A stretch of DNA of 50,533 nt, from assembly GCA_030425425.1 (NCBI GenBank), contig JAUIAO010000045.1, positions 1-50,533 of the forward strand, given 5' to 3'. The position numbers and the translations under genes were made by a program. Below are positions 4,853-46,082 of the stretch, in pieces (position 1 is the stretch's first letter; each line of letters begins with the position of its first letter). Source of the DNA: Bacteroidia bacterium (GTDB lineage Bacteria > Bacteroidota > Bacteroidia > Cytophagales > Cyclobacteriaceae). The notes beneath the pieces were generated by a model, which did not search any database, was not told the DNA's origin, and worked only from the letters and a program-made list of their open reading frames with translations.

Positions 4853-4870
4853 TACGCAATCGATTGCGTA
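4853..4870. promoter_or_regulatory. Operator site 1: perfect 18-bp palindrome TACGCAATCGATTGCGTA
   Basis: The sequence equals its own reverse complement over all 18 bases with a central CG, the symmetry expected for a LacI/GalR-family operator. A near-consensus -7 box (TATCTTTG, 4878-4885) lies 8 bp downstream, so the palindrome covers the -33 to -18 region of that promoter. Three related sites occur at 29962, 46024 and 46065. The regulator family is inferred from symmetry only. Confidence 0.75.
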
Positions 4871-4877
4871 ATTTATT

Positions 4878-4885
4878 TATCTTTG
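4878..4885 (+). promoter_or_regulatory. Bacteroidota -7 box TATCTTTG upstream of the GH5-GH43 gene
   Basis: Exact match to TAnnTTTG. The predicted start of transcription is about 4890, which gives a leader of roughly 120 nt before ATG 5013. No clear TTTG -33 box is seen because operator site 1 occupies that region. Confidence 0.55.
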
Positions 4886-4892
4886 GATTAAT

Positions 4893-4909
4893 AGTGTCAT
4901 TTTGACACT
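4893..4909. repeat. Inverted repeat AGTGTCA-TTT-TGACACT in the leader
   Basis: Two perfect 7-bp arms flank a 3-bp spacer immediately at the predicted transcription start. It could bind a dimeric regulator or form a small hairpin at the 5' end of the transcript. No second full copy was found; AGTGTC alone occurs at 29991-29996 after operator site 2. Confidence 0.5.
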
Positions 4910-5012
4910 TTATAAATATCTGTAGGATGGTTGATTTTAATCGTTTCGTAGGAAAATGCTTCCGTAGATGGTTTTATCATTTTCGTGTCATCTGTTTTTG
5001 AATTTAAATAAT

Positions 5013-8000
5013 ATGAAATACTTTAAGTCGAGTTTGGCGTTGGCCATGCTTTTCCTGGCCGAATTGGCATGGAGTAGCGATGACCCCAACTTGCCAAGAC
5101 TTCATGTGGAGGGTCGGCATTTAAAAGACCCCCATGGAAATACCGTGATTTTACACGGATATGCACAGACTTTTTCGCCATGGTTCAATGAGCGTGGAAC
5201 GAAGTGGAATAATTATGATGTCAATGGATGCCTAAACTACAACAAGGGTATCATTGATCGAGTTTTGGATGCTGGATGGGAAATGAACTTCGTAAGGATG
5301 CACATGGATCCTTATTGGTCCAGTACACCAGGATGTGAAGGAAGATATGAGGGTGAAGAATGCTTCAATGAAACCAGGTTCAGAACGTATCTCGATAAAG
5401 TATTCATTCCTATGGCAGAGTATGCAGTTTCCAAAGGTCTGTACGTAGTGTTACGTCCACCGGGGGTAGCGCCGGATGAAATTGAGGTAGGCGGTGTTTA
5501 TCATGATTATTTATTAAATGTCTGGGATATAGTGGCTAGTCATCCCAAGTTGAAGAATCATCCAAACATTATGTTTGAATTGGCTAATGAACCAATCCAG
5601 ATACTGGGAACGGATGGCACTTATGGCTCCACCTCCCAGGCACATTTTGACAATCTAAAAATTTACTTTCAGGAAATTGTTGACCTTATCCGAGAGAAGG
5701 CCGACAACATTCTTTGGATACCGGGGCTTGGGTGGCAATCTCAATATCAGGGTTTTGCCGTAAACCCAATAGAAGGGAAGAACATAGGCTATGCGGTGCA
5801 CGTGTATCCAGGATGGTTCAATAGCGGACAAGGATATGCAGCTTTCCAAAATGGCTGGAACAATCAGGTTCAACCTGTGGCTGATTTTGCACCTGTTATT
5901 ATAACCGAAATGGATTGGGCACCCGAAAAGTATGAATCCTCTTGGGGCAAGGGTATTACAGGATTAGCTGGAGGTGATGGCTTTGGTGCTAATTTCAAGA
6001 AAATCACTGATGATGCGGGTAATGTAAGTTGGTTGTTATTTACTGAACCTCACCTTTTGGCCAATTTTACCGGGACACCTCCGGCTCAGGGGCAGGATTA
6101 CACTTTTCTGAATGATCCGGAAGCATGTCCCTGGCCCATTTTTAATTGGTATCAGGAATATGCTGAGGTCAATTATCCACGTCCAGATTACGTCAACAAA
6201 TCGCATAGCGACAATGGGGATGGAACTTATACCAATCCGGTTGTTTTCGGTGATTTTCCCGACCCGGATGTCATTCTCGTTGGAGATACTTACTACATGG
6301 TTTCTACCACTATGCACATATTTCCGGGTGCTACGATTCTCAAATCCCACGATTTAGTAAACTGGGAATATTGTAACAATCCCCTTGAAAAGATTGATAA
6401 TGCTGATTGTTATAATTTGAATGGTTGCGATCGATACAGCCACGGTCAGTGGGCCAGTAGTTTAAAGTTTAACAACGGAACTTTCTATCTGCTTTTTAAT
6501 ACACTGGATGAAGGAAGTTTTCTGCTGACTACTACCGATCCGGAGGGATCCTGGGAGATGAAGCAATTGTCTGATAGTTTTTATGACCCGGGTTTGTTTT
6601 TTGATGACGATGAAAAAATATATGTAGTATTCGGGATCAATGAGCTTCGAATATGCGAGTTAGATGAAAATTTCAATAAAATCGACGGTACCGAACAACT
6701 TGTATTTACAGCCACTTTCAGAGATGGCTTGGAAGGGAGTCACCTCTATAAAATTGGCGATTACTATTATATCTATGCGACATATGGCGGATTCCCAGCT
6801 TTTCAGGTAGCGCTACGGTCTTCAGATATCTATGGGCCATATGAGGAGAAGAAATTGCTGGAAGATGATAATATTCATCAGGGTGCACTGATTGAAACGC
6901 AAACTGGGGAGTGGTGGACGATGCTATTTTATGATAAAGGTGCATATGGAAGACTACCCAATTTGCAACCTGTAACCTGGGTAAACGACTGGCCTGAAAT
7001 AGGAGTAGGAGGAAAGGGTGTAACTACATATCAGAAGCCAGATGTGGGTCGGGAGTATCCAATCACTGCCTTACCTACGAATGATAGTTTTAGAGCATAC
7101 AAGTTGGGCTTGCAATGGGGATGGAATCACAACCCTGATAATTCGAAATGGTCGCTGATTGAACGGCCTGATTATTTGCGACTCACTACAGCCAATGTTA
7201 CTTCGGATCTTCGGAGTGCCAGAAACACACTGACCCAAAGAATCTTGGGATACCGCGATGATCCGGATCATTCCTATGGAACCATCAAAATGGAAATCGA
7301 CCACATGACTAATGGTGATGTGGCTGGTTTGGCCTTGTTTCAGGACCCTTATGGATATGTAGGGGTTAAAATGGAGAACGGCGAGAAGAAATTGGTCGCC
7401 ATCAATGACGGTATGGAAGTAGAAGGCCCGGTTGTAACAGCATCGGTCATCTTTCTTAGAGCGGTCGCCAATTACAACACCAGTAAGGCAAGTTTTTATT
7501 ACAGTTTGGACAATGAAGCATACACCAAATTGGGGATGGATTTGTCTATGAGTTTTGATCCGTCCGTTTTCACCGGAAATAAGTTTTGTCTTTTTAATTA
7601 TGCCACCGAACAGACGGGTGGTTTTGTGGATATCGATTGGTTTTCTACTGAAGAGAATTTTAGTGAAGACAAGTTTTACGATGACTCTTTTGTAGGGTAT
7701 AGCGAAGAGGCGTTGACGCTGGTTGACATTGAGATTGATAATCAGGAGTTGTATGTACTTACCGGCAGCCATACCAGCATCAATGTGACTGCCGTCTATC
7801 AGGACGGTCGTCGGGAGGATATCAGTATTGGAGCTACTTACAACAATCCCAATCCGGAAATTATCAGAATTTTTAATGGTCAGATTACTGCCAGTAAAGA
7901 TGGTGCTGTGGATATCAATGTCAGCTTTGAAGGTCCACTTGGGCATAAAATTGACAAAAATGTTCATGTTGTGGCGTCCACCTTTCCTTTGATCGACGGG

Positions 8001-8903
8001 CTTTTTGATCCAACGATTTGGGAAAATGGAACATTTGATGAATCCACAAACACCGTCCAAACGGGCCAATGGGGCTTTGCCGGATGGGAATATGACGGTA
8101 TTGATTTATCCGACTATAATTATGTCATTGCGAAACTTGCCAGTGGTAATAATGCTGATGTTCAGTTCAGGCTATTTGATGAAAGCAGCTACTGGTCTTC
8201 ACCCGTTTCCTATCCATTTCAAACCGGTGAGGTCATTGTTCCCCTTCATAGTGCAGCAAAGGAGGACAACTCTTCCTTCGATCCCAGCCATGTCTATATT
8301 GTTGGGTTTTGGTCCAATGGTAGCAATCCGTTTGTGATTGACACAGTGTATTTGGCCAGTTATCTTGATTCGGATCCTCCAACGCTTCTGGTAAAGGATG
8401 AAAATGGAGGCACAGTAAATGAACTATCAGGATTCAATTATATTAAAGATCAAGGCCCTTCCGATAGTCAATCTTTCAAAATTTACGGATATAGGTTGGC
8501 TGATCAGGTGGAGGTTACTGCGCCAGACGATTTTGAAATTTCTTTGAATCAATCCAGTGGTTATGGAACGAGCCTTTCGCTGAATACAACAGATGGAGAG
8601 CTTGACGAAACGACCATTTATGTTCGCATGAAGGCTGGATTAAATGAGCACTTAATTGCGGGAAGTATCGTGCTCACATCCACAGGTCTTGCTTCAAAAT
8701 CTATACAGCTATCCGGTACCATTAGTGGAACCGTCCTGGGATCAGATGGATTACCAGAGGCAAACTCCAGGATCGTGTTTACACAATGCTACTCACTGTC
8801 TGGGAAGCGAATTCCCAATGTTGACCGTGCGAAAGGCATATTGATTATAAGGGAATTTTATGAGGATGGTACTATAACTGTTCGGAAGATTTTCAAGCCT
8901 TAA
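5013..8903 (+). CDS. Multimodular GH5-GH43 hemicellulase with C-terminal binding/Ig-like modules and T9SS-like tail
   Basis: I start at ATG 5013 (MKYFKSSLALAMLFLAELAWSS, a signal peptide); ATG 4968 adds 15 residues before it. Residues about 25-385 form a GH5 barrel with acid/base Glu193 in ELANEP and nucleophile Glu299 in IITEMDW. Residues about 400-690 form a GH43 propeller of subfamily-12 type, with Asp417 (DFPDPDV), Asp525 (YDPGLFFDDD) and Glu574 (LEGSHLYK). A concanavalin-like sandwich follows to about 890, then a Big_2-like Ig domain (about 900-990), a CBM-like beta domain (about 990-1120), another beta domain and a degenerate sorting tail ending VRKIFKP. One secreted chain thus joins an endo-acting enzyme to a debranching/exo enzyme. 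It is the first gene after operator site 1 and heads the long operon. Confidence 0.9.
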   Translation: MKYFKSSLALAMLFLAELAWSSDDPNLPRLHVEGRHLKDPHGNTVILHGYAQTFSPWFNERGTKWNNYDVNGCLNYNKGIIDRVLDAGWEMNFVRMHMDPYWSSTPGCEGRYEGEECFNETRFRTYLDKVFIPMAEYAVSKGLYVVLRPPGVAPDEIEVGGVYHDYLLNVWDIVASHPKLKNHPNIMFELANEPIQILGTDGTYGSTSQAHFDNLKIYFQEIVDLIREKADNILWIPGLGWQSQYQGFAVNPIEGKNIGYAVHVYPGWFNSGQGYAAFQNGWNNQVQPVADFAPVIITEMDWAPEKYESSWGKGITGLAGGDGFGANFKKITDDAGNVSWLLFTEPHLLANFTGTPPAQGQDYTFLNDPEACPWPIFNWYQEYAEVNYPRPDYVNKSHSDNGDGTYTNPVVFGDFPDPDVILVGDTYYMVSTTMHIFPGATILKSHDLVNWEYCNNPLEKIDNADCYNLNGCDRYSHGQWASSLKFNNGTFYLLFNTLDEGSFLLTTTDPEGSWEMKQLSDSFYDPGLFFDDDEKIYVVFGINELRICELDENFNKIDGTEQLVFTATFRDGLEGSHLYKIGDYYYIYATYGGFPAFQVALRSSDIYGPYEEKKLLEDDNIHQGALIETQTGEWWTMLFYDKGAYGRLPNLQPVTWVNDWPEIGVGGKGVTTYQKPDVGREYPITALPTNDSFRAYKLGLQWGWNHNPDNSKWSLIERPDYLRLTTANVTSDLRSARNTLTQRILGYRDDPDHSYGTIKMEIDHMTNGDVAGLALFQDPYGYVGVKMENGEKKLVAINDGMEVEGPVVTASVIFLRAVANYNTSKASFYYSLDNEAYTKLGMDLSMSFDPSVFTGNKFCLFNYATEQTGGFVDIDWFSTEENFSEDKFYDDSFVGYSEEALTLVDIEIDNQELYVLTGSHTSINVTAVYQDGRREDISIGATYNNPNPEIIRIFNGQITASKDGAVDINVSFEGPLGHKIDKNVHVVASTFPLIDGLFDPTIWENGTFDESTNTVQTGQWGFAGWEYDGIDLSDYNYVIAKLASGNNADVQFRLFDESSYWSSPVSYPFQTGEVIVPLHSAAKEDNSSFDPSHVYIVGFWSNGSNPFVIDTVYLASYLDSDPPTLLVKDENGGTVNELSGFNYIKDQGPSDSQSFKIYGYRLADQVEVTAPDDFEISLNQSSGYGTSLSLNTTDGELDETTIYVRMKAGLNEHLIAGSIVLTSTGLASKSIQLSGTISGTVLGSDGLPEANSRIVFTQCYSLSGKRIPNVDRAKGILIIREFYEDGTITVRKIFKP

Positions 8904-8935: not shown

Positions 8936-11551
8936 ATGATCTCTAATTCTTTGAAACATTCGAAAAGGCACTTCTTCTCAATGATGCTCTTAGTGACGTC
9001 TGCCAGTCTTTTTGGTCAACTGCCTTATCAGAATCCTGACCTGAGCTTCGAAGAGCGGGCGGATGACTTAATCGCTCGGATGACGCTGGAAGAAAAGGCC
9101 GCTTTGATGTGCGATGTTTCTGAGGCGATTCCACGATTAGGGATTAAAAAATTCAATTGGTGGAGTGAGGCATTGCATGGTTACGCCAACAATGATAATG
9201 TGACAGTGTTCCCGGAACCAGTTGGAATGGCCGCATCATTTGATGATGAGCTGGTTTATGAAATTTTCAATGCGGTATCGGATGAAGGCCGGGCTAAATA
9301 CAACGAGTGGATTGCCAATGGAAACGAGAATAAGCGCTTTCTAAGCCTTTCGGTATGGACTCCAAATGTTAATATTTTCAGGGATCCACGCTGGGGAAGA
9401 GGACAAGAAACCTATGGCGAAGATCCTTACCTCACATCCCGAATGGGCGTTCAGGTGGTCAAAGGACTTCAGGGTCCTGAAGATTCGAAGTATCGCAAAT
9501 TGCTGGCTTGCGCTAAGCATTACGCTGTTCACTCCGGACCAGAATGGAGCCGCCATGAATTGAATCTCAACAACATTGACCCACGTGACCTTTGGGAGAC
9601 ATACCTACCTGCTTTTGAATCCTTGGTGAAGGAAGCCAATGTACGACAAGTGATGTGTGCCTATCAGCGGTTGGATGATGAACCTTGTTGCGGAAGTGAT
9701 CGACTGCTTCAGGAAATATTGCGTGAGCAATGGGGATTTGAACATTTGGTAGTATCTGACTGTGGAGCTATTCAGGACTTTTTTACCAGCCACAATGTCT
9801 CATCCGATGCGGTTCATGCGGTGGCAAAAGGAGTTAAAGCCGGAACTGATGTGGAATGCCAGTGGAACAATCATAACTACAGGTTAATCCCTGAAGCAGT
9901 GGAACGAGGACTGTTAAAAGAGGAGGAAGTTGACATCCGATTGAAGAGGGTGCTGATTGGCCGATTCGAACTGGGGGAAATGGATTCGGATGAAATAGTG
10001 CCGTATGCCCAAATTTCGCCATCTATTCTGAACAATGAAAAGCACCGTCAATTAGCTCTGGAAATGGCTCAAAAGTCCATGACCCTGCTCCAGAATAAGG
10101 GCAATGTATTACCATTGAGCAAATCCATTAAGAAATTGGCCGTAATTGGTCCCAATGCTGACAATGAGCCAATGCTTTGGGGAAACTATAATGGTACACC
10201 GGTTCGGACGATTTCTATCTTAAATGGAATTAAATCCAAAGTTTCTGAAGAGAAGATCATCTATGACAAGGCCGTAGATCACGTAGATGATAAAGTAACG
10301 AACAGCTATTTCTCTCAGTTTAGATCAGGTGATAAGCAAGGAATAAAAGCTACCTATTGGAATAATCGGGATAGAAGCGGTGATCCTGTGAACACTACCC
10401 AAATCACCAACCCAATGAAATTAACCACAGCAGGACAGCATGAGTTTGCTTCAGGGGTTATGTTGGAAGGTTTTTCTGCGAAATATGAAACCGAGTTCAT
10501 ACCATCCAAAACGGAGGAACTGGTTTTTAAAATGGGTGCAACAGGTTATTTTGAATTGTTCGTGAATGATTCTTCATTGGTTCGCTACAACAACTGGCGA
10601 ACATTGCCTTCACGCCAGCCTTACATCTTCGAGGCTGGCAAAACATATAAAATTGAGATTCGATATGCACAGCTAAATAACTGGCAGGCCAATATTGAAT
10701 TTGATTTTGGAAAGGAAGTGGATATCGATTTTACTGGTCTGATTAATAGGCTAGAAGGCACTGAGGTGGTGGTTTTTGTAGGGGGGCTTTCCGGTTTGTT
10801 GGAGGGTGAAGAAATGCCTGTCTCGTATCCTGGATTTAAAGGAGGAGACCGTACGAACATCGAATTGCCATCAGTACAGCGAAGATGCTTACAGGCGCTG
10901 AAGGACGCAGGTAAGACCGTCATTTTTGTCAACTGCTCCGGCTCTGCCATTGCATTTACTCCGGAGACCCAAAGCTGTGATGCCATTCTTCAGGCATGGT
11001 ACGGAGGTGAATCAGGCGGACAGGCTGTAGCAGATGTTCTTTTTGGTGATTACAATCCTTCAGGAAAACTGCCGGTAACCTTTTACAAAAGCTCCGATCA
11101 ACTGTGGGATTTTGAAGACTATTCGATGGATGGTAAGACCTATCGGTTTATGGAAGATGCACTCTTCCCGTTTGGTTATGGTCTCAGCTACACACAGTTT
11201 GAAATTGGAAATGCAAAACTCAGTAAGGACAGGATTAACGCGGATGAATCTACCATGTTGACAATCCCTGTTTCCAATAAAGGCAAAATGACAGGGACTG
11301 AGCTTGTGCAGGTTTATGTAAAGAGGGTTGGAGATCAGGATGGGCCTATTAAAACGCTGAGAGGTTTCGAACGTGTGGAGTTGGCTGCTGGAAAACGAGG
11401 CAATGCAGAGATCGTGCTTGGACCGAAGGCTTTTGAATTTTATGATCGTGAGAGTAGAGAGATGAAAGTGTTACCTGGAGATTACGAGATCTACTATGGA
11501 AACAGCTCCAATCGCAGCGACTTAAAGGTTACCCAATTATCAATATTATAA
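8936..11551 (+). CDS. GH3 beta-xylosidase/beta-glucosidase with PA14 insert
   Basis: An 871-residue enzyme that should release xylose from the non-reducing end of xylo-oligosaccharides. A signal peptide ends near SLFGQ. The GH3 barrel begins at about 35 (DLSFEERADDLIARMTLEEK) and carries RDPRWGRGQETYGEDP, the substrate-binding AKHYAVHSGPE and nucleophile Asp275 in VVSDCGAI. The C-terminal GH3 domain is split at about residues 463-600 by a PA14-like domain (GIKATYWNN...FELFVNDS...YKIEIRYAQ), then resumes with VVFVGGLSGLLEGEE and ends in a fibronectin III-like domain (GTELVQVYVK). This layout is common in xylosidases of Bacteroidota. It lies 32 bp after the GH5-GH43 gene and 11 bp before a GH43 gene. 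A beta-glucosidase role cannot be excluded. Confidence 0.93.
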   Translation: MISNSLKHSKRHFFSMMLLVTSASLFGQLPYQNPDLSFEERADDLIARMTLEEKAALMCDVSEAIPRLGIKKFNWWSEALHGYANNDNVTVFPEPVGMAASFDDELVYEIFNAVSDEGRAKYNEWIANGNENKRFLSLSVWTPNVNIFRDPRWGRGQETYGEDPYLTSRMGVQVVKGLQGPEDSKYRKLLACAKHYAVHSGPEWSRHELNLNNIDPRDLWETYLPAFESLVKEANVRQVMCAYQRLDDEPCCGSDRLLQEILREQWGFEHLVVSDCGAIQDFFTSHNVSSDAVHAVAKGVKAGTDVECQWNNHNYRLIPEAVERGLLKEEEVDIRLKRVLIGRFELGEMDSDEIVPYAQISPSILNNEKHRQLALEMAQKSMTLLQNKGNVLPLSKSIKKLAVIGPNADNEPMLWGNYNGTPVRTISILNGIKSKVSEEKIIYDKAVDHVDDKVTNSYFSQFRSGDKQGIKATYWNNRDRSGDPVNTTQITNPMKLTTAGQHEFASGVMLEGFSAKYETEFIPSKTEELVFKMGATGYFELFVNDSSLVRYNNWRTLPSRQPYIFEAGKTYKIEIRYAQLNNWQANIEFDFGKEVDIDFTGLINRLEGTEVVVFVGGLSGLLEGEEMPVSYPGFKGGDRTNIELPSVQRRCLQALKDAGKTVIFVNCSGSAIAFTPETQSCDAILQAWYGGESGGQAVADVLFGDYNPSGKLPVTFYKSSDQLWDFEDYSMDGKTYRFMEDALFPFGYGLSYTQFEIGNAKLSKDRINADESTMLTIPVSNKGKMTGTELVQVYVKRVGDQDGPIKTLRGFERVELAAGKRGNAEIVLGPKAFEFYDRESREMKVLPGDYEIYYGNSSNRSDLKVTQLSIL

Positions 11552-11562
11552 TATTCTAAATC

Positions 11563-12915
11563 ATGACAATCAATAAGATCACGTGTTTATTGCTATGGTT
11601 GCCGTCAACCATATCCCTCATTGCTCAAAACCCGGTTGTTCAAACTTACTATACCGCGGATCCAGCTCCCATGGTCTATGATGACGTGATGTATATGTAC
11701 ACCACCCACGATCATGACACAGCAAAGACGTTTTTCAGGATGTACGACTGGCGGGTTTATTCCACTAGTGACATGGTCAACTGGCGTGATCACGGAACAG
11801 CCCTGGCACTTGCGGATCTTGATTGGGCTGATGATCGTGCCTGGGCGGCTCAGACGGTGTTTCGAAATGGAAAATTTTATTTTTATATCTGTGCACATCA
11901 CCGGGAGTTAAATCAAATGGCCATTGGAGTGGCTGTGTCAGACAAACCTACAGGACCTTTCAAAGATGCACTGGGAAAGCCTTTGATTACACAGGATTGG
12001 GGAGATATTGATCCTACGGTTTTCATCGATGACGATGGGCAAGCTTACATGTATTGGGGCAACCCTCAATTGCAATATGTGAAACTCAATGAGGACATGG
12101 TGTCCTACGATGAAGAGGTTGGTATTGTTAAAGTGCCTGTGACTCCTGCAAGTTTTGGCAATTCCAATCGAAAAAATCCTGAGCGTGGCGGATATGTAGA
12201 GGGTCCCTGGCTGCATAAACAAGATGATTTGTATTACCTGCTTTATCCTGCGGGAGGTATTCCTGAGCACCTAGCTTATTCAACCAGCGAAAATCCTACA
12301 GGTCCATGGACTTATCAGGGTAAAATCATGGAAGTCATTGAGGAAGGAGGTGCTTTTACCAATCATCCGGGATTAATTAATTATAAAGGCCATTCCTATC
12401 TATTTTATCACAATGGAGCCTTGCCAGGAGGGGGTGGTTTTACAAGATCGGTGTGTGTAGACGAATTCCAATTTACGGCTGATGGTAAGATTCCTATGAT
12501 TAGTCCCACTAAAGAGGGTGTGAAACGAGTAGATGTCCTTGACCCTTTGGAATGGGTGGAGGCTGAAACCATAGCTTATTCCAATGGAGTAAAAACGACT
12601 GAATCAGATGGGGAGATTTTTGTAAGCGACATTCATAACGGGGACTATATTAAAGTTCAGGCGGTGGATTTCGGTAAAGGTTGCAAGCAATTTGAAGGTA
12701 AGCTGGCAAGCATCAATGGAGGTCGATTGGAAATTCGCCTTGACTCGGTTGAGGGTGCATTGCTAGGCACAGTGGATGTAACCGGGCCAGGAGCCTGGGA
12801 AACTCTTTCTACTTCATTCAAAAAGACAAAAGGGGTTCACGATATCTACTTTGTGTTTAGGGGTGAGTCTGAAGAGGCGCTCTTCAATTTTGATTCGTGG
12901 AAATTATCAAAATAG
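11563..12915 (+). CDS. GH43 arabinofuranosidase/xylosidase with C-terminal CBM6
   Basis: A 450-residue secreted enzyme likely to cut arabinose side chains from arabinoxylan. The signal peptide ends near SLIAQ. Catalytic acids are Asp33 (YTADPAP), Asp150 (DIDPTVFIDDDGQAYMYWGN) and Glu213 (YVEGPW). From about residue 328 (LEWVEAETIAYSNGVKT) to the end there is a CBM6 beta-sandwich with HNGDYIKVQAVDFG and GRLEIRLDS...GTVDV motifs. It is paralogous to the GH43-CBM6 at 25901-27265, and both share the unusual WGNP turn. It follows GH3 by 11 bp, so the two are surely on one transcript. Arabinoxylan arabinofuranohydrolase is the closest family role I recall; specificity is inferred. Confidence 0.92.
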   Translation: MTINKITCLLLWLPSTISLIAQNPVVQTYYTADPAPMVYDDVMYMYTTHDHDTAKTFFRMYDWRVYSTSDMVNWRDHGTALALADLDWADDRAWAAQTVFRNGKFYFYICAHHRELNQMAIGVAVSDKPTGPFKDALGKPLITQDWGDIDPTVFIDDDGQAYMYWGNPQLQYVKLNEDMVSYDEEVGIVKVPVTPASFGNSNRKNPERGGYVEGPWLHKQDDLYYLLYPAGGIPEHLAYSTSENPTGPWTYQGKIMEVIEEGGAFTNHPGLINYKGHSYLFYHNGALPGGGGFTRSVCVDEFQFTADGKIPMISPTKEGVKRVDVLDPLEWVEAETIAYSNGVKTTESDGEIFVSDIHNGDYIKVQAVDFGKGCKQFEGKLASINGGRLEIRLDSVEGALLGTVDVTGPGAWETLSTSFKKTKGVHDIYFVFRGESEEALFNFDSWKLSK

Positions 12916-12969
12916 CATGAAACTGGTTAGTGAAAAGTCTATAGAAAATATTGCCAAATAACTACTTGA

Positions 12970-14916
<1,947 letters not shown>

Positions 14917-14943
14917 TCAATCTGAAATTGCTGGCTGCACATA

Positions 14944-15183
14944 TTGATGTTCATTTTTCAAGGAAGGACGAGTAAAACATATGTCAATGGATCACAAAAG
15001 GAATTTGATATGAGAAATGATATGTTTTTGAAGGGAATGCTAATGTCTTCATTGAGTATTCAGCGTTTTGCTCACAATGCTACTTCGAAGTATCACACTG
15101 GTAAAATCAACACTGATAAACAGGAGAGGGGTTTGCATAGACGTAGAGGCTTTTTCACCAGTTTGATCCCCATAGTTGACTAA
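14944..15183 (+). CDS. Short open reading frame of doubtful status
   Basis: A 79-codon frame fills most of the 292-bp gap between the CE1 and GH127-type genes. The product is basic and has no signal peptide, membrane segment or motif I recognise. An inner ATG at 15010 (MRNDMFLKGML...) is another possible start. It could be a small unknown protein, a decayed remnant or a chance frame; I lean to chance or remnant. I see no clear promoter or hairpin in the same gap. Confidence 0.2.
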   Translation: MMFIFQGRTSKTYVNGSQKEFDMRNDMFLKGMLMSSLSIQRFAHNATSKYHTGKINTDKQERGLHRRRGFFTSLIPIVD

Positions 15184-15208
15184 TTGAAATAAAAATGATT
15201 CAAAAACA

Positions 15209-17608: not shown

Positions 17609-17647
17609 ATGAATATCAGCTCAGAACTTTTTAAGATAAGAGATCAA

Positions 17648-20782: not shown

Positions 20783-20860
20783 TAAATGAGATCCGCTTGT
20801 AAGCCCAATATATCGAGTCAAAAGTCTGGCTCTAATGTTTTATAATAAATACCTCAGCAG

Positions 20861-28297: not shown

Positions 28298-28301
28298 GAC
28301 T

Positions 28302-29979: not shown

Positions 29980-29985
29980 TATTTG
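29978..29985 (+). promoter_or_regulatory. -7 box TATATTTG of the GH10/receptor operon
   Basis: Exact TAnnTTTG match. A CTTG at 29955-29958 lies 19 bp upstream and fits a Bacteroidota -33 element. Transcription should begin about 29990, giving a leader of about 28 nt before ATG 30018. Confidence 0.65.
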
Positions 29986-32160: not shown

Positions 32161-32892
32161 TTGAGTAACAAAATAACTTATACGAGTCTTGTTCTCCTTT
32201 TCATTACGCTCTTTGAACTGAAGGCACAATACAGTCTTCATGATTTTTCATTGGACCAAAATTTGTCAATATGGTACGATGAGCAGATTGGGTTAGAAAA
32301 CACGATATTACTAAATGGTGAGAAGTACACTTTTTCCAAAAAGTCCCCGAATTCTCACGAATATTTCAAGGACAATTCATGGCGGAAGGCTCATATAGTT
32401 TACTTCGACCAGCAGTTTGAAAGTATTCCTGCGATCTATAATATCGAAAATGATGAATTGGTTATTCAACACCCGATTTTGCCTGCCTATGCTATTAAAC
32501 TTATCAGGGAGCAGGTTTCTTCATTTTCTTTTGAGAATGATAATTTTAGGTTCATCGAAGAATCAATCAATTTTCATCCTCCAGGCTACTATAAGGTATT
32601 CTTTCAGGGTCGCAAGATCGAACTGATCTGTAAAGTCTCTAAAGAACTTGTAATCAAATCCGGTATTCTGACCTATAAATTGAAATACAAACCTTTCATT
32701 AAACTGGCTTCAGAAACGAAGTACAAATCAGTCAGGCGTGTTTCTGATGTGATAAAAATGTTTCCGGAAGAAAAAGAAGAACTGAAACTGTTTAGGAAAA
32801 AACACAAGATCAAGCGGAAACTCAATAACCCAGACAACCTTCAACGGCTCAACCAATTACTAATTCATTGCGAAAAGATCATGGAGGAATGA
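32161..32892 (+). CDS. Secreted protein of unknown function preceding the TonB-dependent receptor
   Basis: A 243-residue product read from a TTG codon 7 bp after the GH10 stop; no ATG serves better without losing the signal peptide (YTSLVLLFITLFELKAQ). The mature part has alternating beta-strand segments (SIWYDEQIGLENTILLNGEKYTF, YFKDNSWRKAHIVYF) and a basic C-terminus (LFRKKHKIKRKLNNP). I recognise no named domain. Its final codons overlap the start of the receptor gene by ATGA (32889-32892), a strong sign of translational coupling, so it likely works with the receptor. A periplasmic or surface accessory role is inference. Confidence 0.75.
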   Translation: MSNKITYTSLVLLFITLFELKAQYSLHDFSLDQNLSIWYDEQIGLENTILLNGEKYTFSKKSPNSHEYFKDNSWRKAHIVYFDQQFESIPAIYNIENDELVIQHPILPAYAIKLIREQVSSFSFENDNFRFIEESINFHPPGYYKVFFQGRKIELICKVSKELVIKSGILTYKLKYKPFIKLASETKYKSVRRVSDVIKMFPEEKEELKLFRKKHKIKRKLNNPDNLQRLNQLLIHCEKIMEE

Positions 32893-35660: not shown

Positions 35661-35677
35661 AGCGATATAAACAAAGA

Positions 35678-36946
35678 ATGAATTTGCTAAGAAAAACCAT
35701 TAATACTGTACAAATCTCTCGCTTCCATAGAGGTGGTTCAATTGCGATAGGACTTTTGTTTTTAGCACTTTTTTCATGTGTAGAGGAGTTTCCGTTTGAA
35801 TCCCGTGACTACAAAAAGGTTCTTGTCATTGAAGGAAGATTCACTGATGAAGTAGGCACGCATCAGGTCAAGATTGGATATACAAGGCGCCTGGATGAAC
35901 AGCAACAGGAAGTTGTAAGCGGCGCAGAGGTATGGGTAGAGGGCTCCGATGGTTCTGTATTTAATTATAATGAAACAGAACCTGGTGTGTATGAAACTGA
36001 TCCCTTAGTGTCAGGTACTGCCGGAATTAGCTACCAATTGCATGTTTCCATAGACGATAAAGTGTACCAATCAACCAAGCAGAAATTAATCCCATCACCC
36101 CCTATAGAGGAACTTTATCATGAATATAAGGAATTGGTAGTGGAGTCGACAAAAGAAGTGAGACCGGGTATTCAGTTTTTTATAGACACTCAGGATTTAA
36201 CAAACCAAGCCTTGCATTACAGGTATGAGTGGGAGGAAACTTATGAAGTGAGACCACCCTGGCCTTCACAATACGAGTATCTGGCGGATCTTGATACGCT
36301 AGTTCCACGTTTACCACCTTTGCAGATCTGTTATCGAACAGCTCAATCTTCAGATATTTTATTGGGCAGTACAGCCGGGTTTACTGAAAATAAGCTTTCA
36401 GCCATGCCAGTGAGATACATCACCACGGCTACTGATCAATTGAAATATGCTTATTCGATTTTAGTCCATCAATACGCCATAAGCAGCCAAGCCTACAATT
36501 ATTACCGTGAACTTAACGAAGGTAATTCGGGAGGATCTTTGTTCGATTCTCAGTTGGGAACACTTCAGGGTAACCTGACGTCTTTGAATGATGCTTCAGA
36601 AGTGGTACTTGGTTTTTTTGAAGTCTCCGGAAAGAGTTCGCGCAGAGAGTTCGTTAGATATGAATGGTTAGACAAGAGATTTCCCCCACCAGATCAGTAT
36701 TATAATTGCAGTATTTCCCAGGTAAAGCTCATTGTGGAGCCAGGTCCGCCCTATGAAATTTCTGATAGCCTGAGGTATTATGTTGTTGGTAAAGGTTTGG
36801 AAGTCATTGAAGCTGTATATTGTGATGATACCGGGTCTCAGAATGAGGAATGTCCATATTACCTAGAAGCACTACTGGCTCCAAAATATTGCACGGATTG
36901 CCGGTTCAGAGGGACACTCCAAAAACCGGATTATTGGATATTCTGA
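35678..36946 (+). CDS. DUF4249 lipoprotein paired with the TonB-dependent receptor
   Basis: A 422-residue lipoprotein (lipobox LALFSC, Cys34, after a somewhat long N-region). The body has the beta-sandwich start YKKVLVIEGRFTDEVGTHQVKIGYTRRLDE, the GAEVWVEGSDGS strand and the family's C-terminal Cys-rich signature (YCTDCRFRGTLQKPDYW). DUF4249 genes commonly sit directly after TonB-dependent receptors with carboxypeptidase-regulatory domains in Bacteroidota. The function is not established; by position it occupies the place of SusD and may be a surface ligand-binding lid or lipoprotein. It is spaced 17 bp from the receptor and 1 bp from the next gene, so one transcript is nearly certain. Confidence 0.85.
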   Translation: MNLLRKTINTVQISRFHRGGSIAIGLLFLALFSCVEEFPFESRDYKKVLVIEGRFTDEVGTHQVKIGYTRRLDEQQQEVVSGAEVWVEGSDGSVFNYNETEPGVYETDPLVSGTAGISYQLHVSIDDKVYQSTKQKLIPSPPIEELYHEYKELVVESTKEVRPGIQFFIDTQDLTNQALHYRYEWEETYEVRPPWPSQYEYLADLDTLVPRLPPLQICYRTAQSSDILLGSTAGFTENKLSAMPVRYITTATDQLKYAYSILVHQYAISSQAYNYYRELNEGNSGGSLFDSQLGTLQGNLTSLNDASEVVLGFFEVSGKSSRREFVRYEWLDKRFPPPDQYYNCSISQVKLIVEPGPPYEISDSLRYYVVGKGLEVIEAVYCDDTGSQNEECPYYLEALLAPKYCTDCRFRGTLQKPDYWIF

Positions 36947-41646: not shown

Positions 41647-44600
41647 TTACTTCTTGATGAATCTGAGAGTTTCTTTGTTGTCTATGATGAAATAGTATAC
41701 ACCTGGCTCAACTGAAGAAACATCTATTTGCTGGTTTTTCAGGTTATTGAATTGCTGAATTACTTTTCCTGAAACATTCACAATCTTAGCAGAGGCAGGT
41801 TTTTCCAGACCACTGATATTTAGAATATTACTTGTAGGATTAGGATACAACTGGATATGTTCAGTTTTTGGTGTACTTAATACATTCACAGTAAAGTAGA
41901 GACTGTACGTTTTGAAAGTAGCACCATCTTCGGCAGTTACTAATACCTGAGTTCTTCCTGGTATGCTGGTCGCCGGTGTAATCTCTACTGTAGCCCCACC
42001 GTTTGTTGCTGTTGCGCTTACGGTAGGAATGGTTGTTGTACCAATCGGTAGCTCAATATCATACCATGTTATTCCCGCAGAGAAGCCCGAAACTGTAGTT
42101 CCATCCATTGTAAGGTCTGATAGCGTGGCATCATCTGACAATACACTGAAATCAATACTGTAAGTGGCCTGTGTTGTACCATCCTCAGCAGTTACGGTAA
42201 CCGTTGTTGTGCCCGGTAAACTGGCTGCAGGATCAACCGAGAACGTAGCGTTTGGATCGGTGGTGGTTGCTGAAACGTCTGGGACCTCTGTGCTTCCGAC
42301 TGGTAATTTAATTGCATAGCTTAAGGTCCCAGAATTAAAGCCAGATACTGTACTACCATCTACAGTAAGATCAGACAAGCTTGCGTCTGTTGCAGGATCC
42401 GCAACTGTAAAATTGATGCTGTATGTTTTTAGAGTTGTACCATCTTCAGCAGTTACAACAACTTCTGTGGTTCCTGGCAGACCTGCTGCCGGGGTAACTG
42501 AGTATGATGCGTTCGAGTCAGTAGTAGTAGCATCAACTGTAGGCACAGCATCTGTTCCGTAAGGTAATACAACGTCATAGCTCACAGTTTCTGAAGAGAA
42601 ACTTCCCACGGTACTTCCATCTACCGTAAGATCTGATAATGTCGCATCAGTTGACGGGTCAGCTACTGTGAAGTTCAGACTGTAAGTTTTTATCGTGGTA
42701 CCATCCTCTGCAGTTACGGCAACTGTAGTAGTTCCAGGAAGAGTAGTCGCTGCTGTAATGATATAAGTAGCACCATCATCTGTTGTTGTGGCCTCAACAG
42801 TTGGGACTGTATCAGTTCCAAACGGCAACACAACATCATAACTTTCTATGTCAGAAGTAAAACCTTCTACGGTACTTCCATTTACGGTGAGATCTGATAA
42901 AGTGGCATCATCAGAAGGGCCGATTGGTTTTTCTGTAATACTCACATTATCGATGTAGTATGTTCCAGCAACTTCACCCAAATCGAAATTGAGGCCCGTT
43001 TCCAGACCATGCGCCACGATTTCCCAAGAGACCATTTGCCAGTCCGTAGTTGTTACAGCATCGGGCTGATAATGAGCTGAAGGGCCGGAGGTTGAACATC
43101 TTACAGATCCTTCTGAATCTGAACGGATATAATAGCTCACAACATAAGTAACATCTTTATCGAGAGAACGAGTTAAATCTGCATGGATTTGTACATTCCA
43201 CTGCTCTCCAGGAGTACTGGTCTCATTCACCACTTTCATCGCACCCATTCCTTCGTATGCAGAACCGCCATAAGTTGATTCCTGTGTGATTTCTATTCCT
43301 GCTCCAGGGTTTTTAGCGATGTAGTTATCAATATTTCCTGATTCAAAGTCACCAAAAAACACGTCAGTTGAGGCCGTTAAATCTGTTACTTTGATGTTAT
43401 CTATATAATAGGTCATGTCAGCAATAGTACCCATGTCGAAGTTTAATTCAACATTGTCTAATAGAGCCTCAAGATCAGCTCCATAAATTTCCGTGTAGGT
43501 TATTGTTTGCCATTCATTACTCGTTGTGAAGTTTGGCCAATATTGGTTGGCGAAGGAATTGGCACCGAGAGAAATACGACCCGTACCGTCTCCCGTCGAA
43601 CGAACATCGAAAGACACTTCATATAAATTACCAACCGTGAGCGGAATGGATGGAGTGGCAAGTTGTAAATCCCAATCATTAGCAGAAGCACTACTCGCAG
43701 TTAGTTTGACCGCATATGCACTTCCTGATGCAAGAGAAAGGGCATTGTCACCGCCGTTCCATTTAGCCCAACCATCAAGACCGGATTCGAAGGTGCCGTT
43801 AGCAATGTATGCCAATGGCGGAGCTTCTGCATCCAGGTCAACAATTGACACGTTATCCAGATAATAAACCATGTCAGCGATGTATCCTAAATCGAAGTTG
43901 AGTTCTACATTGTCTAAAAGTGCTACCAAATCTTCTCCATAGATGGCTGTGTAACTAATTGTTTGCCATTCATCACTTGTTGTAAAGTCAGGCCAATACT
44001 GCTGAGAAAATGAAGCACCGCCTAAAGAAATTCGGCCTTGTCCAGCGCCCACAGAGCGTATGTCAAAAGACACCTCATATTTATGTCCTACTATCAACGG
44101 AACTGATGCAGTTGCTAATTGCAAATCCCACGCATTAGTACCAGAGCCAGCAGTTAATTTGGCAGCATAATCACCTCCATTTGTTGATTCCTGAGTGATT
44201 TCTATTCCTGCTCCAGCATTCTTTATGTTAAAGCTGCTAAGATCCCCTGATTCAAAATCTCCAGCAGTGAAAATATTTGGTGCCTGAAAGGCCTGAGAAA
44301 AGTTAATCACATAAGTTTTTGTGCTAGCATCTTCAGCGGTCACTAGCACATGAGCAATTCCAGGAATACCAGGAGCTGGCGTAACACTTACAGTGGCGGC
44401 TCCATTAGTAGCAGTAGCTTCAACAGTCGGAACAGTTGTGGTTCCAGCCGCTAATACAACATTGTAGGAAGTCACATCTGGATCAAAATCCGTTATTGTG
44501 GCACCATCCACTGTGAGATCTGATAAGGTGGCATCATTTGAAACCACAGCCACTTTCTCCGTGGTGCTTACATTATCAATGTAATAAGTGCCCGCAACTT

Positions 44601-45963
44601 CACCCAGGTCAAAATTCAAACCTGTTTCTGTGCCATTTCCTGTGATATCCCAAGTGACAAGCTGCCATTCTGTAGTGGTTGCCTGATCTCCTTGATAATG
44701 AGCGGTTGTACCTGTTGTAGAACAGCGTACCGATCCGGCTGATTCTGAACGGATGTAATAGCTTACCGTATAATCCACTCCCTCGGTTAGCGTCGCGGTG
44801 AAATCTGTATGAATCTGAACATTCCATTGTTGACCCGGAGTACTGGTTTCATTGATGACTTTCATCGCACCACCACCTTCATATACATTGGGACTATTAG
44901 TGGATTCCTGCGTGATTACAATTCCTGCACCAGGGTTCTTGGCGTTGAAATTATCAATGTTACCTGCCTCGAAATCACCGACAAAAACGTCAGATTGTGC
45001 AGTCAAGTCAGTTACTTTTATATTGTCTATATAGTAAACCATGTTGGCTATATAACCTATGTCGAAGTTCAGCTCCACATTATCCAAAAGTGCCTCCAGA
45101 TCTGCTCCATATATAGCAGTGTATGAGACTGTTTGCCATTCTTCAGAGGTTGTGAAATCAGGCCAATATTGATGTGTGAAAGATGTTGCGCCAAGCGAAA
45201 TTCTTCCTTGACCTGCTCCAGTCGAACGTATGTCGAATGATACTTCATATAGGTTACCAACCGTAAGCGGTATAGAGGGAGTAGCCAGCTGTAAATCCCA
45301 TGCGTTGGTACCTGTTCCAGCAGTTAACTTGACCGCATATTCACTAGCTGTTGCATGAGAAAGTGCATTGTCACTACCATTCCATTTTGCCCATCCCTCT
45401 ATTCCGGATTCGAACGTACCATTTGTGATATAATCTGTAACAGGAGGTTCTGCATCCAGATCTACAACCTTGATATTGTCCAGATAGTAGACCATGTCAG
45501 CTATGTATCCCAAATCGAAATTAATTTCGACATTGTCTAATAGAGCTTCAAGATCAGCTCCATAAATGGCCGTATAGGTAATCGTCTGCCATTCGTCTGT
45601 TGTGTTGAAATCAGGCCAGTATTGATGGGTAAATGAACTTGCTCCTAGAGAAATTCGTCCCTGTCCAGCCCCCACTGAGCGGATGTCAAAGGACACCTCA
45701 TATTTGTTTCCAATCGTAAGTGGTATAGAAGGAGTTGCGAGTTGTAAGTCCCAGGCATTGGTGCCGCTACCAGCCGTTAGTTTTACGGCATAGTCTCCAC
45801 CATTAGTGGATTCTTGTGTGATTTCAATCCCTGCACCTGGATTTTTTAAACTATAATCAGTCAGATCTCCTGTCTCAAAATCACCAGAGAATATAGTGGA
45901 TTGAGCAAAAACATTGAAAGCTGCAATAACAGCCATTACAAATAATAGGTATCGGTTTTTCAT
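41647..45963 (-). CDS. Giant non-catalytic multi-CBM/cadherin-like surface protein with T9SS tail
   Basis: A 1438-residue secreted protein with no hydrolase motif. The signal peptide (1-21, ending NVFAQ) is followed by modules A1 (22-170), A2 (171-322), B1 (323-474), cadherin-like sandwich C1 (475-562), A3 (563-718), A4 (719-866), B2 (867-1016), C2-C5 (1017-1362) and a T9SS sorting domain (1363-1438; IQLYPNPTSNILNISGL...GVYYFIIDNK...RFIKK). The A and B modules resemble CBM4/9/22-type jelly rolls (NGTFESGIEGWAKWNG, YEVSFDIRS, YYIDNIKV). The C modules are cadherin-like beta-sandwiches (DATLSDLTVDGSTV...TVTAEDGTTKTYSINF). The A-A-B-C unit is duplicated, each copy about 541 residues. It shares a divergent, operator-bearing promoter region with the CE20-CE4 gene. 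A role in capturing xylan at the cell surface or acting as a binding scaffold is inferred. Confidence 0.9.
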   Translation of the reverse strand: MKNRYLLFVMAVIAAFNVFAQSTIFSGDFETGDLTDYSLKNPGAGIEITQESTNGGDYAVKLTAGSGTNAWDLQLATPSIPLTIGNKYEVSFDIRSVGAGQGRISLGASSFTHQYWPDFNTTDEWQTITYTAIYGADLEALLDNVEINFDLGYIADMVYYLDNIKVVDLDAEPPVTDYITNGTFESGIEGWAKWNGSDNALSHATASEYAVKLTAGTGTNAWDLQLATPSIPLTVGNLYEVSFDIRSTGAGQGRISLGATSFTHQYWPDFTTSEEWQTVSYTAIYGADLEALLDNVELNFDIGYIANMVYYIDNIKVTDLTAQSDVFVGDFEAGNIDNFNAKNPGAGIVITQESTNSPNVYEGGGAMKVINETSTPGQQWNVQIHTDFTATLTEGVDYTVSYYIRSESAGSVRCSTTGTTAHYQGDQATTTEWQLVTWDITGNGTETGLNFDLGEVAGTYYIDNVSTTEKVAVVSNDATLSDLTVDGATITDFDPDVTSYNVVLAAGTTTVPTVEATATNGAATVSVTPAPGIPGIAHVLVTAEDASTKTYVINFSQAFQAPNIFTAGDFESGDLSSFNIKNAGAGIEITQESTNGGDYAAKLTAGSGTNAWDLQLATASVPLIVGHKYEVSFDIRSVGAGQGRISLGGASFSQQYWPDFTTSDEWQTISYTAIYGEDLVALLDNVELNFDLGYIADMVYYLDNVSIVDLDAEAPPLAYIANGTFESGLDGWAKWNGGDNALSLASGSAYAVKLTASSASANDWDLQLATPSIPLTVGNLYEVSFDVRSTGDGTGRISLGANSFANQYWPNFTTSNEWQTITYTEIYGADLEALLDNVELNFDMGTIADMTYYIDNIKVTDLTASTDVFFGDFESGNIDNYIAKNPGAGIEITQESTYGGSAYEGMGAMKVVNETSTPGEQWNVQIHADLTRSLDKDVTYVVSYYIRSDSEGSVRCSTSGPSAHYQPDAVTTTDWQMVSWEIVAHGLETGLNFDLGEVAGTYYIDNVSITEKPIGPSDDATLSDLTVNGSTVEGFTSDIESYDVVLPFGTDTVPTVEATTTDDGATYIITAATTLPGTTTVAVTAEDGTTIKTYSLNFTVADPSTDATLSDLTVDGSTVGSFSSETVSYDVVLPYGTDAVPTVDATTTDSNASYSVTPAAGLPGTTEVVVTAEDGTTLKTYSINFTVADPATDASLSDLTVDGSTVSGFNSGTLSYAIKLPVGSTEVPDVSATTTDPNATFSVDPAASLPGTTTVTVTAEDGTTQATYSIDFSVLSDDATLSDLTMDGTTVSGFSAGITWYDIELPIGTTTIPTVSATATNGGATVEITPATSIPGRTQVLVTAEDGATFKTYSLYFTVNVLSTPKTEHIQLYPNPTSNILNISGLEKPASAKIVNVSGKVIQQFNNLKNQQIDVSSVEPGVYYFIIDNKETLRFIKK
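41878..42915 (-). repeat. Four tandem cadherin-like beta-sandwich repeats (C2-C5)
   Basis: Four 85-87-residue units each begin with (S/A)(T/D)DA(T/S)LSDLT and contain LPGTT-type and TAEDGTT turns. A fifth copy (C1) lies earlier, between the duplicated halves. They match the cadherin-like beta-sandwich family often used as spacers. Confidence 0.85.
42655..45900 (-). repeat. Internal tandem duplication of a 541-residue module set
   Basis: Residues 22-562 (45900-44278) and 563-1103 (44277-42655) have the same order A-A'-B-C, and matching modules are highly alike (for example GSGTNAWDLQLAT and GAGQGRISLG occur in both A1 and A3). Module boundaries were set by eye, so the equal length is approximate. 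Confidence 0.8.
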
Positions 45964-46017
45964 TGGTCAAATGTTTGAAAATAAATTAATAGAACTTGGC
46001 AAAGAAGCTCAGCACTT

Positions 46018-46025
46018 CAAATCTA
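46018..46025 (-). promoter_or_regulatory. -7 box TAGATTTG of the multi-CBM gene
   Basis: Read on the minus strand this matches TAnnTTTG exactly; its TA coincides with the end of operator site 3. Transcription would begin near 46012, about 50 nt before the start codon. Confidence 0.6.
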
Positions 46026-46041
46026 CACAATCGTTTGCGTA
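46024..46041. promoter_or_regulatory. Operator site 3: TACACAATCGTTTGCGTA
   Basis: Matches the palindrome at 16 of 18 bases. On the minus strand it overlaps the -7 box of the multi-CBM gene in the same way site 2 overlaps that of GH10. Its centre is 41 bp from that of site 4, about four helical turns. Confidence 0.7.
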
Positions 46042-46064
46042 AATTATCATATCATTTTAAAAAT

Positions 46065-46082
46065 TACGCAATCGATTGTTTA
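46065..46082. promoter_or_regulatory. Operator site 4: TACGCAATCGATTGTTTA
   Basis: Matches the palindrome at 16 of 18 bases. Its terminal TA begins a weak -7-like TAAATTGC (46081-46088) facing the CE20-CE4 gene, about 50 bp before ATG 46132. Confidence 0.7.

What the first reader, a model, noticed from the sequence alone, without database searches (positions are those of the whole stretch)
4853..46082. A shared 18-bp palindromic operator at three promoter regions (four sites)
TACGCAATCGATTGCGTA is perfect at 4853-4870, 17/18 at 29962-29979, and 16/18 at 46024-46041 and 46065-46082. At sites 2, 3 and 4 the terminal TA is also the TA of a TAnnTTTG or near-TAnnTTTG -7 box, on the strand of the downstream gene. 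This repeated geometry points to a single repressor, probably LacI/GalR-type given the central CG symmetry, that controls the debranching operon, the GH10/receptor operon and the CBM-protein/CE20-CE4 pair. Bacteroidota xylan loci are more often known for hybrid two-component regulation, so this would be a different mode.
Basis: partly seen in the sequence, partly recalled or inferred. Interest (0 to 1): 0.75.

Follow-up and report, generated by a model that had tools for sequence, protein, structure and literature searches.

The report
LacI-type operators of a xylan regulon
The four matching DNA palindromes are real and belong to a set of eight in this marine bacterium, one of them beside a LacI-type regulator gene, which most likely uses them to control scattered xylan-digestion genes together.

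Summary
All four 18-bp palindromes are where stated (0.01 expected). The 5.85-Mb draft genome has eight such sites at up to 3 mismatches, the reversed pattern none. The other four lie on two contigs: two before a SusC/SusD pair; one between GH67-UxuA-GH51 and GH3-GH10-transporter-GH43; one between a LacI-family gene and a mannonate oxidoreductase-GH115 pair. The pairing recurs in relatives: 9 of 14 related LacI copies have a site within 400 nt upstream. In 12 genomes 49 of 57 sites lie outside ORFs, against 4 of 14 control sites. Targets are largely xylan and glucuronate genes. The -7 overlap is exact only at sites 2 and 3. Similar sites also occur in genomes without a close copy, where other LacI groups use a related core. 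Best reading: a cytoplasmic LacI repressor of a multi-locus glucuronoxylan regulon. Binding, repression and inducer are untested. A new member of a known kind.

The parts
4853..4870 (.). operator 1, TACGCAATCGATTGCGTA, upstream of the GH5-GH43 gene and the debranching cluster
   Evidence: (0 mismatches)
4878..4885 (+). candidate -7 box TATCTTTG, 7 nt beyond operator 1
   Evidence: consensus match only
5013..8903 (+). GH5-GH43 fusion (Pfam), first gene after operator 1; the ORF list starts it at ATG 4968, but ATG 5013 is followed by a signal-peptide-like stretch
   Evidence: start choice is inference
8936..29695 (+). same-strand cluster downstream of operator 1: GH3, GH43-CBM6, esterase, GH127, GH30-like, GH9, GH31, GH43-CBM6, alpha/beta hydrolase, one ORF without Pfam match; co-transcription not shown (about 290-nt gap before 15209)
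29962..29979 (.). operator 2, TACACAATCGATTGCGTA, upstream of the GH10 gene
   Evidence: (1 mismatch)
29978..29985 (+). candidate -7 box TATATTTG sharing the terminal TA of operator 2
30020..32153 (+). GH10 protein with sorting domain; the TTG start at 29973 in the ORF list lies inside the operator and is unlikely
   Evidence: start choice is inference
32868..36946 (+). TonB-dependent receptor (32868-35660) and DUF4249 protein (35678-36946) downstream of GH10
41647..45963 (-). protein with repeated CBM4_9 domains and a sorting domain, divergent gene faced by operator 3
46018..46025 (-). candidate -7 box TAGATTTG sharing the terminal TA of operator 3, toward the CBM gene
46024..46041 (.). operator 3, TACACAATCGTTTGCGTA
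   Evidence: (2 mismatches)
46065..46082 (.). operator 4, TACGCAATCGATTGTTTA, 41 bp from operator 3
   Evidence: (2 mismatches)
46132..48840 (+).
48837..50465 (+). GH30-like protein with sorting domain, downstream of the CE gene

Best explanation
The palindromes are operators of one LacI-family regulator, encoded outside the window at C3:15153-16223 (protein P0001). Its dimer would read the core CAATCGATTG, with its hinge leucine (Leu57) at the central CG. Without xylan it sits just upstream of, or across, the promoters and blocks RNA polymerase at eight sites in six intergenic regions: three in the window (GH5-GH43 cluster; GH10/receptor; CBM protein and CE pair), two on C3 (GH67-UxuA-GH51 with GH3-GH10-GPH symporter-GH43; the LacI gene with mannonate oxidoreductase-GH115), and one on C70 (SusCD). 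When xylan fragments enter the cytoplasm, a small molecule, most likely from the glucuronate side-chain pathway or a xylo-/aldouronic oligosaccharide, releases it and the loci come on together. Shown by computation: the sites, their rarity, their places, the LacI gene, recurrence in relatives. Inferred: binding, repression, operon extents, inducer.
For: 8 sites genome-wide against 0 for the reversed pattern; each of the 8 lies 24-133 nt from the listed ORF start of its nearest facing gene (142 instead of 97 nt for site 1 if ATG 5013 is used). P0001 is a LacI-family protein (PF00356 40.6 bits, cut-off 27) with a site 78 nt upstream of its ORF. Of five LacI HTH genes in the genome the other four have no strong site in the fetched surroundings (best 9.9 bits at the C12 gene, against 23.5-32.1 for the eight). 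In 12 genomes 9 of 14 LacI copies have a site of up to 4 mismatches within 400 nt upstream; in two more the LacI gene stands in a same-strand run headed by a site. 49 of 57 sites lie outside ORFs against 4 of 14 control sites. GH67, UxuA, UxuB-type SDR, GH115, GH10, GH2, GH43 and SusC-like genes recur beside sites; further ones include GH11-CBM60 and GH62. P0001 lies in a supported branch of 10 of 40 tree rows (98/96); members with a site have the TAC type, while several members of the sister branch have ATGCAA-type sites. The HTH residues T20-R23 and the hinge L57 are invariant in 10 aligned copies.
Against: The closest relative, Marinoscillum pacificum (74% identical), has no site directly upstream of that LacI gene, though five sites front other loci on the same contig. 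G050 and the C10 copy of G001 have no site there either. The motif is not confined to genomes with a close copy: 89 of 118 genomes have at least one match at up to 3 mismatches, and some without a copy of about 45% have as many as 7-9 (G051 9, G019 7, G038 7, G115 7; reversed control 0, 0, 0, 1). Other LacI groups share a core GCAAYCGATTGC, so cross-binding is possible; the C12 paralogue of this genome has AGTGCAACCGATTGCATG upstream. One intact-core site lies inside an ORF (G001:C30). No binding or expression data. Activation instead of repression is not excluded.
Confidence: 0.85

Rival explanations
1. Another LacI paralogue of the same genome (C12, C1, C98 or C89) binds the window sites, and P0001 controls only its own locus.
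For: Other LacI groups in relatives have a similar core, GCAAYCGATTGC, and genomes without a close P0001 copy can hold several matches; the C12 paralogue has AGTGCAACCGATTGCATG upstream.
Against: The same full 18-mer type stands beside P0001 and its relatives. The four paralogues differ in the recognition helix (SSATVSR twice, SVSTVSR, STSTVSR against SPSTVSR) and have no strong site nearby. The C89 gene stands among what look by eye like galactose-pathway genes.
Confidence: 0.06
2. P0001 acts as an activator, or as a dual regulator, rather than as a repressor.
Against: Sites 2 and 3 overlap the candidate -7 box; autoregulatory and divergent placements fit repression; most LacI-family members repress (recalled).
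Confidence: 0.1
3. The inducer is xylose or a xylo-oligosaccharide, and the glucuronate genes are merely carried along.
For: Many targets act on the xylan backbone or its arabinose branches (GH10, GH3, GH43); GH11 and GH62 genes face sites in G040.
Against: xylA and the kinase-like gene beside it have no site of up to 3 mismatches and diverge from an NrtR-type regulator gene, while UxuA, UxuB-type SDR, GH67 and GH115 recur at sites and beside the LacI gene.
Confidence: 0.35
4. The palindromes are chance or a repeat element.
For: One distant relative, G107, has 17 matches, nearly all copies of a repeated sequence of another kind.
Against: 0.01 expected in the window; 0 reversed-pattern matches in the genome; intergenic placement and conservation.
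Confidence: 0.01

Closest known systems
LacI-family uronate regulators of Bacteroides thetaiotaomicron (UxuR BT1434, UxaR BT0824, KdgR BT0487, UxmR BT3613), predicted in PMC3878776 (passages seen)
   Same: LacI family, Bacteroidota, control of uronate catabolism inferred by comparative genomics
   Different: There they are listed for monosaccharide pathways; here the sites also front xylanase, debranching, carbohydrate-binding and SusC/SusD genes on three contigs. Orthology and motif were not compared.
LacI gene labelled in the xylan PUL of Gramella flava JLT2011 (PMC5306329, passages seen)
   Same: A LacI-type gene within a marine Bacteroidota xylan locus
   Different: The passages seen give only the gene label in a figure legend, no operator and no regulon.
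Hybrid two-component systems of Bacteroides (arabino)xylan loci (PMC10766802, passages seen)
   Same: Switch on xylan-degrading loci
   Different: Membrane sensor system of another family; none was found by Pfam among the 24 window proteins scanned.
NrtR-family XylR (BT0791) of Bacteroides, xylose (PMC3878776, passages seen)
   Same: Sugar regulator for xylose in Bacteroidota; this genome has an NrtR-type gene divergent from xylA
   Different: Different protein family; the xylA region lacks the LacI operator here.
LacI-family XylR of Proteobacteria such as Xanthomonas and Caulobacter (recalled; the review calls XylR a LacI-family repressor without naming these in the passages seen)
   Same: Repressor with palindromic operators at xylan and xylose genes (recalled)
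   Different: Other phylum; no motif or protein comparison was made here.

Membership tests
LacI/GalR family | N-terminal LacI HTH plus periplasmic-binding-protein-like sensor domain | tested here: met
   PF00356 40.6 bits (cut-off 27), PF13377 107.9 (26.5), PF00532 104.4 (22.2)
LacI/GalR family | palindromic operator with central CG, and a hinge leucine | tested here: met
   central CG in all 8 own sites; L57 invariant in 10 aligned copies. That the hinge leucine meets the CG is recalled.
LacI/GalR family | binds the operator and is released by an effector | not testable with these tools
   needs purified protein
CcpA | curated equivalog score | tested here: not met
   TIGR01481 186.1 bits, cut-off 442.35, although CcpA is the best PDB sequence match
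RbsR, CytR, PurR, GalR and other NCBIfam LacI models | curated score | tested here: not met
   best model (RbsR, NF047341) 198.3 bits, cut-off 382; none of the 22 models listed reached its cut-off
Bacteroides UxuR (BT1434) | orthologous protein and same motif | not tested
   sequence and motif were not at hand; regulon content overlaps in kind only
Hybrid two-component regulation of a xylan PUL | HTCS gene in or beside the locus | tested here: not met
   no such domain in the 24 window proteins scanned nor in the 12 C3 and 7 C70 proteins scanned; genes further off, and an HTCS elsewhere, were not looked for
   2 of 69 gene-facing flanks exact (shuffle mean 0.34, p 0.06); up to one mismatch 14 of 69 (shuffle mean 4.9) against 0 of 28 flanks facing no gene

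The most novel reading that the evidence does not exclude
A single cytoplasmic LacI repressor, sensing a metabolite of the glucuronate side chain rather than xylose or a periplasmic oligosaccharide, coordinates the dispersed glucuronoxylan system of a Bacteroidota group, outer-membrane SusCD uptake included, in place of local hybrid two-component sensors. In one relative (G070) the regulon has also taken in a corrinoid O-demethylation cluster, which could remove the 4-O-methyl group of methylglucuronate.
Probability: 0.4. Interest if true: 0.6.

Novelty: new member of a known kind. Interest (0 to 1): 0.5.

Why it matters
It gives a testable one-regulator explanation for three promoter regions in the window and three more elsewhere, names the regulator gene, and offers an operator motif by which xylan and glucuronate genes, including unannotated ones, can be sought in marine bacteria related to Marinoscillum. 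It would be a LacI-type alternative to the hybrid two-component control best known for Bacteroidota xylan loci.

Tried and rejected
Chance or repeat origin: rejected. A looser pattern, TNNNCAATCGATTGNNNA with up to 2 mismatches, gave 525 places against 122 for the reversed control, too loose to use. At no mismatch it added only C11:22508 and C120:28859. C11:22508 lies at the 3' end of one ORF just before the next on the same strand. C120:28859 is 98 nt upstream of an alpha-amylase-type gene with CBM48 (branching-enzyme-like by eye), has 4 mismatches and scores 19.5 bits against 23.5 for the weakest of the eight; it is left out of the regulon but not excluded.

The -7 overlap as a general rule: not upheld as exact matches, weakly supported at one mismatch. 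CcpA- or RbsR-type identity for the regulator: not met by curated scores. The Flavobacteriaceae proteins at 37-39% identity fall outside the P0001 group in the tree, and no such site was seen upstream of those examined.

Counting choices. The 12 genomes are those whose best LacI copy is about 45% or more identical. G010 (46%, gene at a contig edge) was left out of the 57; its LacI ORF has TACGCAATCGATTGTTTA upstream. Of the 57 sites, 49 were fetched first, together with two sites of 4 mismatches, and the other 8 later. Of the first 49, 2 lie inside ORFs, one with a broken core (G016) and one with an intact core (G001:C30). Of the later 8, 6 lie inside ORFs and none of these six keeps the CAAYCGRTTG core. 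The reference set for target genes comes from the own genome, so the own 8 of 8 is circular. The matrix was built from 47 sites chosen by similarity to the consensus, so its information content is inflated. In the tree, the G013, G016 and G004 copies dropped out through my removal of duplicates; motif labels were set by me, and each motif type needs two changes on the tree, not one.
Full report
Observation. The window is one whole contig (C102) of a draft genome of 5,848,220 bases in 121 contigs. In that genome the 18-mer occurs eight times at up to three mismatches, and the reversed control zero times.

The four sites outside the window. C3:9155 lies between GH67-UxuA-GH51 (reverse) and GH3-GH10-GPH symporter-GH43 (forward). 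C3:16302 lies between a LacI-family gene (C3:15153-16223, reverse) and an SDR-GH115 pair (forward). C70:59385 and C70:59407 lie in tandem in front of a SusC/SusD pair that is followed by a second one. The SDR passes NCBI's curated cut-off for the D-mannonate oxidoreductase subfamily, UxuA for mannonate dehydratase, and the transporter for the GPH symporter family. So C3 reads as a glucuronoxylan locus: alpha-glucuronidase families GH67 and GH115, the UxuA/UxuB steps, xylanase and xylosidase-type families (functions by family, recalled).

Window genes. Pfam gives, after site 1, GH5-GH43, GH3, GH43-CBM6, an esterase, GH127, a GH30-like protein, GH9, GH31, another GH43-CBM6 and an alpha/beta hydrolase. 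After site 2 come GH10, a TonB-dependent receptor and a DUF4249 protein, then GH97. Around sites 3 and 4 stand a CBM4_9-repeat protein on the reverse strand and a SASA-polysaccharide deacetylase protein followed by a GH30-like protein on the forward strand. I scanned 24 of the 48 listed ORFs, the non-overlapping large ones; no credible regulator domain was found (a ToxS match on the CBM protein had no stretch of its own), and three had no Pfam match. That each site controls the whole run of genes behind it is inference; there is a gap of about 290 nt before the GH127 gene.

The regulator. P0001 (356 aa) matches PF00356 with 40.6 bits, above the cut-off of 27, and the LacI sensor-domain families. 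It reaches none of the 22 NCBIfam cut-offs listed (best, RbsR, 198.3 against 382; CcpA 186.1 against 442.35); the best PDB sequence match is CcpA. The genome has five LacI HTH genes. The other four have different recognition helices and no strong site in their fetched surroundings; the best is 9.9 bits at the C12 gene, against 23.5 to 32.1 bits for the eight sites (the matrix includes the eight).

Relatives. The nearest named relative is Marinoscillum pacificum, LacI 74% identical, order Cytophagales, family Reichenbachiellaceae. A search of 118 genomes with P0001 hit 83. I took 12 genomes whose best copy is about 45% identical or more, the own genome included; G010, also 46%, was left out. 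They hold 57 sites at up to three mismatches, against 14 for the reversed pattern. Of the 57, 49 lie outside ORFs of 120 aa or more; of the 14 control sites, 4. Of the eight inside ORFs, one keeps the CAAYCGRTTG core and seven do not.

A result against strict specificity. In the same 118 genomes 89 have at least one match, and some without a close copy of P0001 have many: G051 9, G019 7, G038 7, G115 7, with reversed-control counts 0, 0, 0 and 1. Many of the listed ones read TGCGCAATCGATTGCGCA or TATGCAATCGATTGC, and LacI copies at 40-43% identity have ATGCAA-type sites upstream. So the core is common to several LacI groups, and the outer bases carry the difference. A match alone in a distant genome does not name the regulator.

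Autoregulatory placement. Of 14 LacI copies in the 12 genomes, 9 have a site of up to four mismatches within 400 nt upstream: G000, G005, G002-C5, G048, G013, G029, G016, G040 and G001-C1. Five do not: G002-C26, G004, G050, G001-C10 and G070. In G004 and G070 the LacI gene lies on the same strand behind genes that a site precedes. The missing site at G002-C26, the closest relative, counts against a strict autoregulation rule; five other sites lie about 9 to 31 kb away on that contig, at GH43, SusC-like, TIG-protein, GH30/CE and GH67-UxuA/GH10 genes.

Targets in relatives. Of 47 first-batch sites of up to three mismatches outside ORFs, 8 are the own ones and 39 are from relatives. Of the 39, 21 face an ORF at least 34% identical to a protein of the own xylan set; the set includes the LacI protein, and 5 of the 21 count through a LacI gene alone. 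11 more face a SusC-like ORF, or in one case a GH10-like ORF, at 25-29% identity, and 7 face something else. Pfam on five surroundings of those seven sites gave GH11-CBM60, GH62, a TIG-CBM4_9 protein, a TIG protein, and a URO-D gene divergent from a homocysteine S-methyltransferase gene with two of the sites between them. The seventh site has a 110-aa ORF in front of a GH10-like gene on one side and GH67-UxuA on the other. Of the two later sites outside ORFs, one faces a GPH symporter 65% identical to the own one and one a LacI paralogue at 39%. In G040 a site also precedes a three-gene TRAP transporter.

Motif and protein. Over 47 sites the matrix holds 27.3 bits, with C5, A6, A7 and C9 of each half invariant; the sites were chosen by similarity, so this is an upper figure. 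In a tree of 40 LacI proteins P0001 falls in a supported branch of ten (98/96) next to a branch of 12 (100/100). The motif types cluster on the tree (3 of 500 shuffles as low) but each needs two changes, not one. In ten aligned copies T20, V21, S22, R23 and the hinge leucine L57 are invariant. That the LacI hinge leucine meets a central CG step is recalled knowledge of the family.

Promoter geometry. Exact TAnnTTTG boxes that use the operator's terminal TA occur at site 2 toward GH10 and site 3 toward the CBM gene; site 1 has one 7 nt further on; site 4 has only a 4-of-6 match. Over 69 gene-facing flanks of 51 sites the exact register is seen in 2, both in this window (shuffle mean 0.34, p 0.06). 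At one mismatch it is seen in 14 (shuffle mean 4.9), and in 0 of 28 flanks that face no gene. Exact boxes anywhere from offset 16 to 44 occur in 9 of 69 (shuffle mean 2.2). Several ranges were tried, so these p values are rough. The sites do lie at promoters, and an overlap with the -7 box is plausible in part of them, but not a fixed rule. Steric block of RNA polymerase is the simplest reading.

What it senses. xylA and the kinase-like gene beside it carry no site and diverge from an NrtR-type gene, the family of the xylose regulator predicted in Bacteroides. uxaC also has no site at three mismatches; two weak cores of six mismatches lie between uxaC and a divergent mannitol-dehydrogenase-family gene. 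Because UxuA, the UxuB-type SDR, GH67 and GH115 recur at the sites and next to the LacI gene, a glucuronate-pathway metabolite is my first choice of inducer, at roughly even odds against xylo- or aldouronic oligosaccharides.

Literature. Bacteroides UxuR, UxaR, KdgR and UxmR are predicted LacI regulators of uronate pathways (PMC3878776, and the first three also PMC4052901; passages seen). Gramella flava has a LacI gene labelled in its xylan PUL (PMC5306329, passages seen). [quoted passage not shown] thetaiotaomicron (PMC10766802, passages seen). A beta-1,3-xylan paper describes XylRA, with a LacI-type ligand domain and an AraC DNA-binding domain, in Vibrio and other Gammaproteobacteria (PMC12125979, passages seen). 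My ten paper searches, in a library that lacks most subscription journals, listed no title or abstract start that describes this operator or a LacI regulon over Bacteroidota xylan loci; that is weak evidence of absence.

Verdict. It is a new member of a known kind, a LacI-type sugar regulon, with an unusual reach for a Bacteroidota xylan system.

Noticed in passing
L146:6393-12195 (G070:C4, about 318392-324194): Two operators (319441, 319507) between a homocysteine S-methyltransferase-like gene and a run of URO-D-type methyltransferase, B12-binding, MTHFR-like and pterin-binding genes: it looks like a corrinoid O-demethylation cluster under the xylan regulator, perhaps for 4-O-methylglucuronate. 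The URO-D protein has a match (E up to 1e-20) in only 2 of 118 genomes, the other one at 35% identity.
   Followed up: partly
L174:352-3949 (G000:C65): xylA and a kinase-like gene (xylB-like by eye) diverge from an NrtR/NUDIX-type regulator gene, with no LacI operator.
   Followed up: partly
L175:1720-2013 (G000:C112): Two weak LacI-like cores, TGTGCAATCGGTTACGCT and TGAGTAATCGATTGCAAT, between uxaC and a divergent mannitol-dehydrogenase-family gene.
   Followed up: no
L124:6711-7317 and L125:1464-2495 (G000:C12, C1): Two LacI genes with nearly identical N-termini on different contigs; the C12 copy runs off the contig end and has AGTGCAACCGATTGCATG upstream.
   Followed up: no
L121:5613-8363 (G040:C1): A three-gene TRAP transporter (DctP, DctQ, DctM) beside an operator and next to the UxuB-type SDR gene, a possible uronate importer.
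   Followed up: partly
window:29973: The longest GH10 ORF starts with a TTG inside operator 2; the ATG at 30020 is the likelier start.
   Followed up: yes
G107:C1 (several places): A 1.2-Mb genome of the same order has 17 matches, of which all but one of those listed are copies of AAGGCAATAGATTGCGTA, a repeat of another kind.
   Followed up: no
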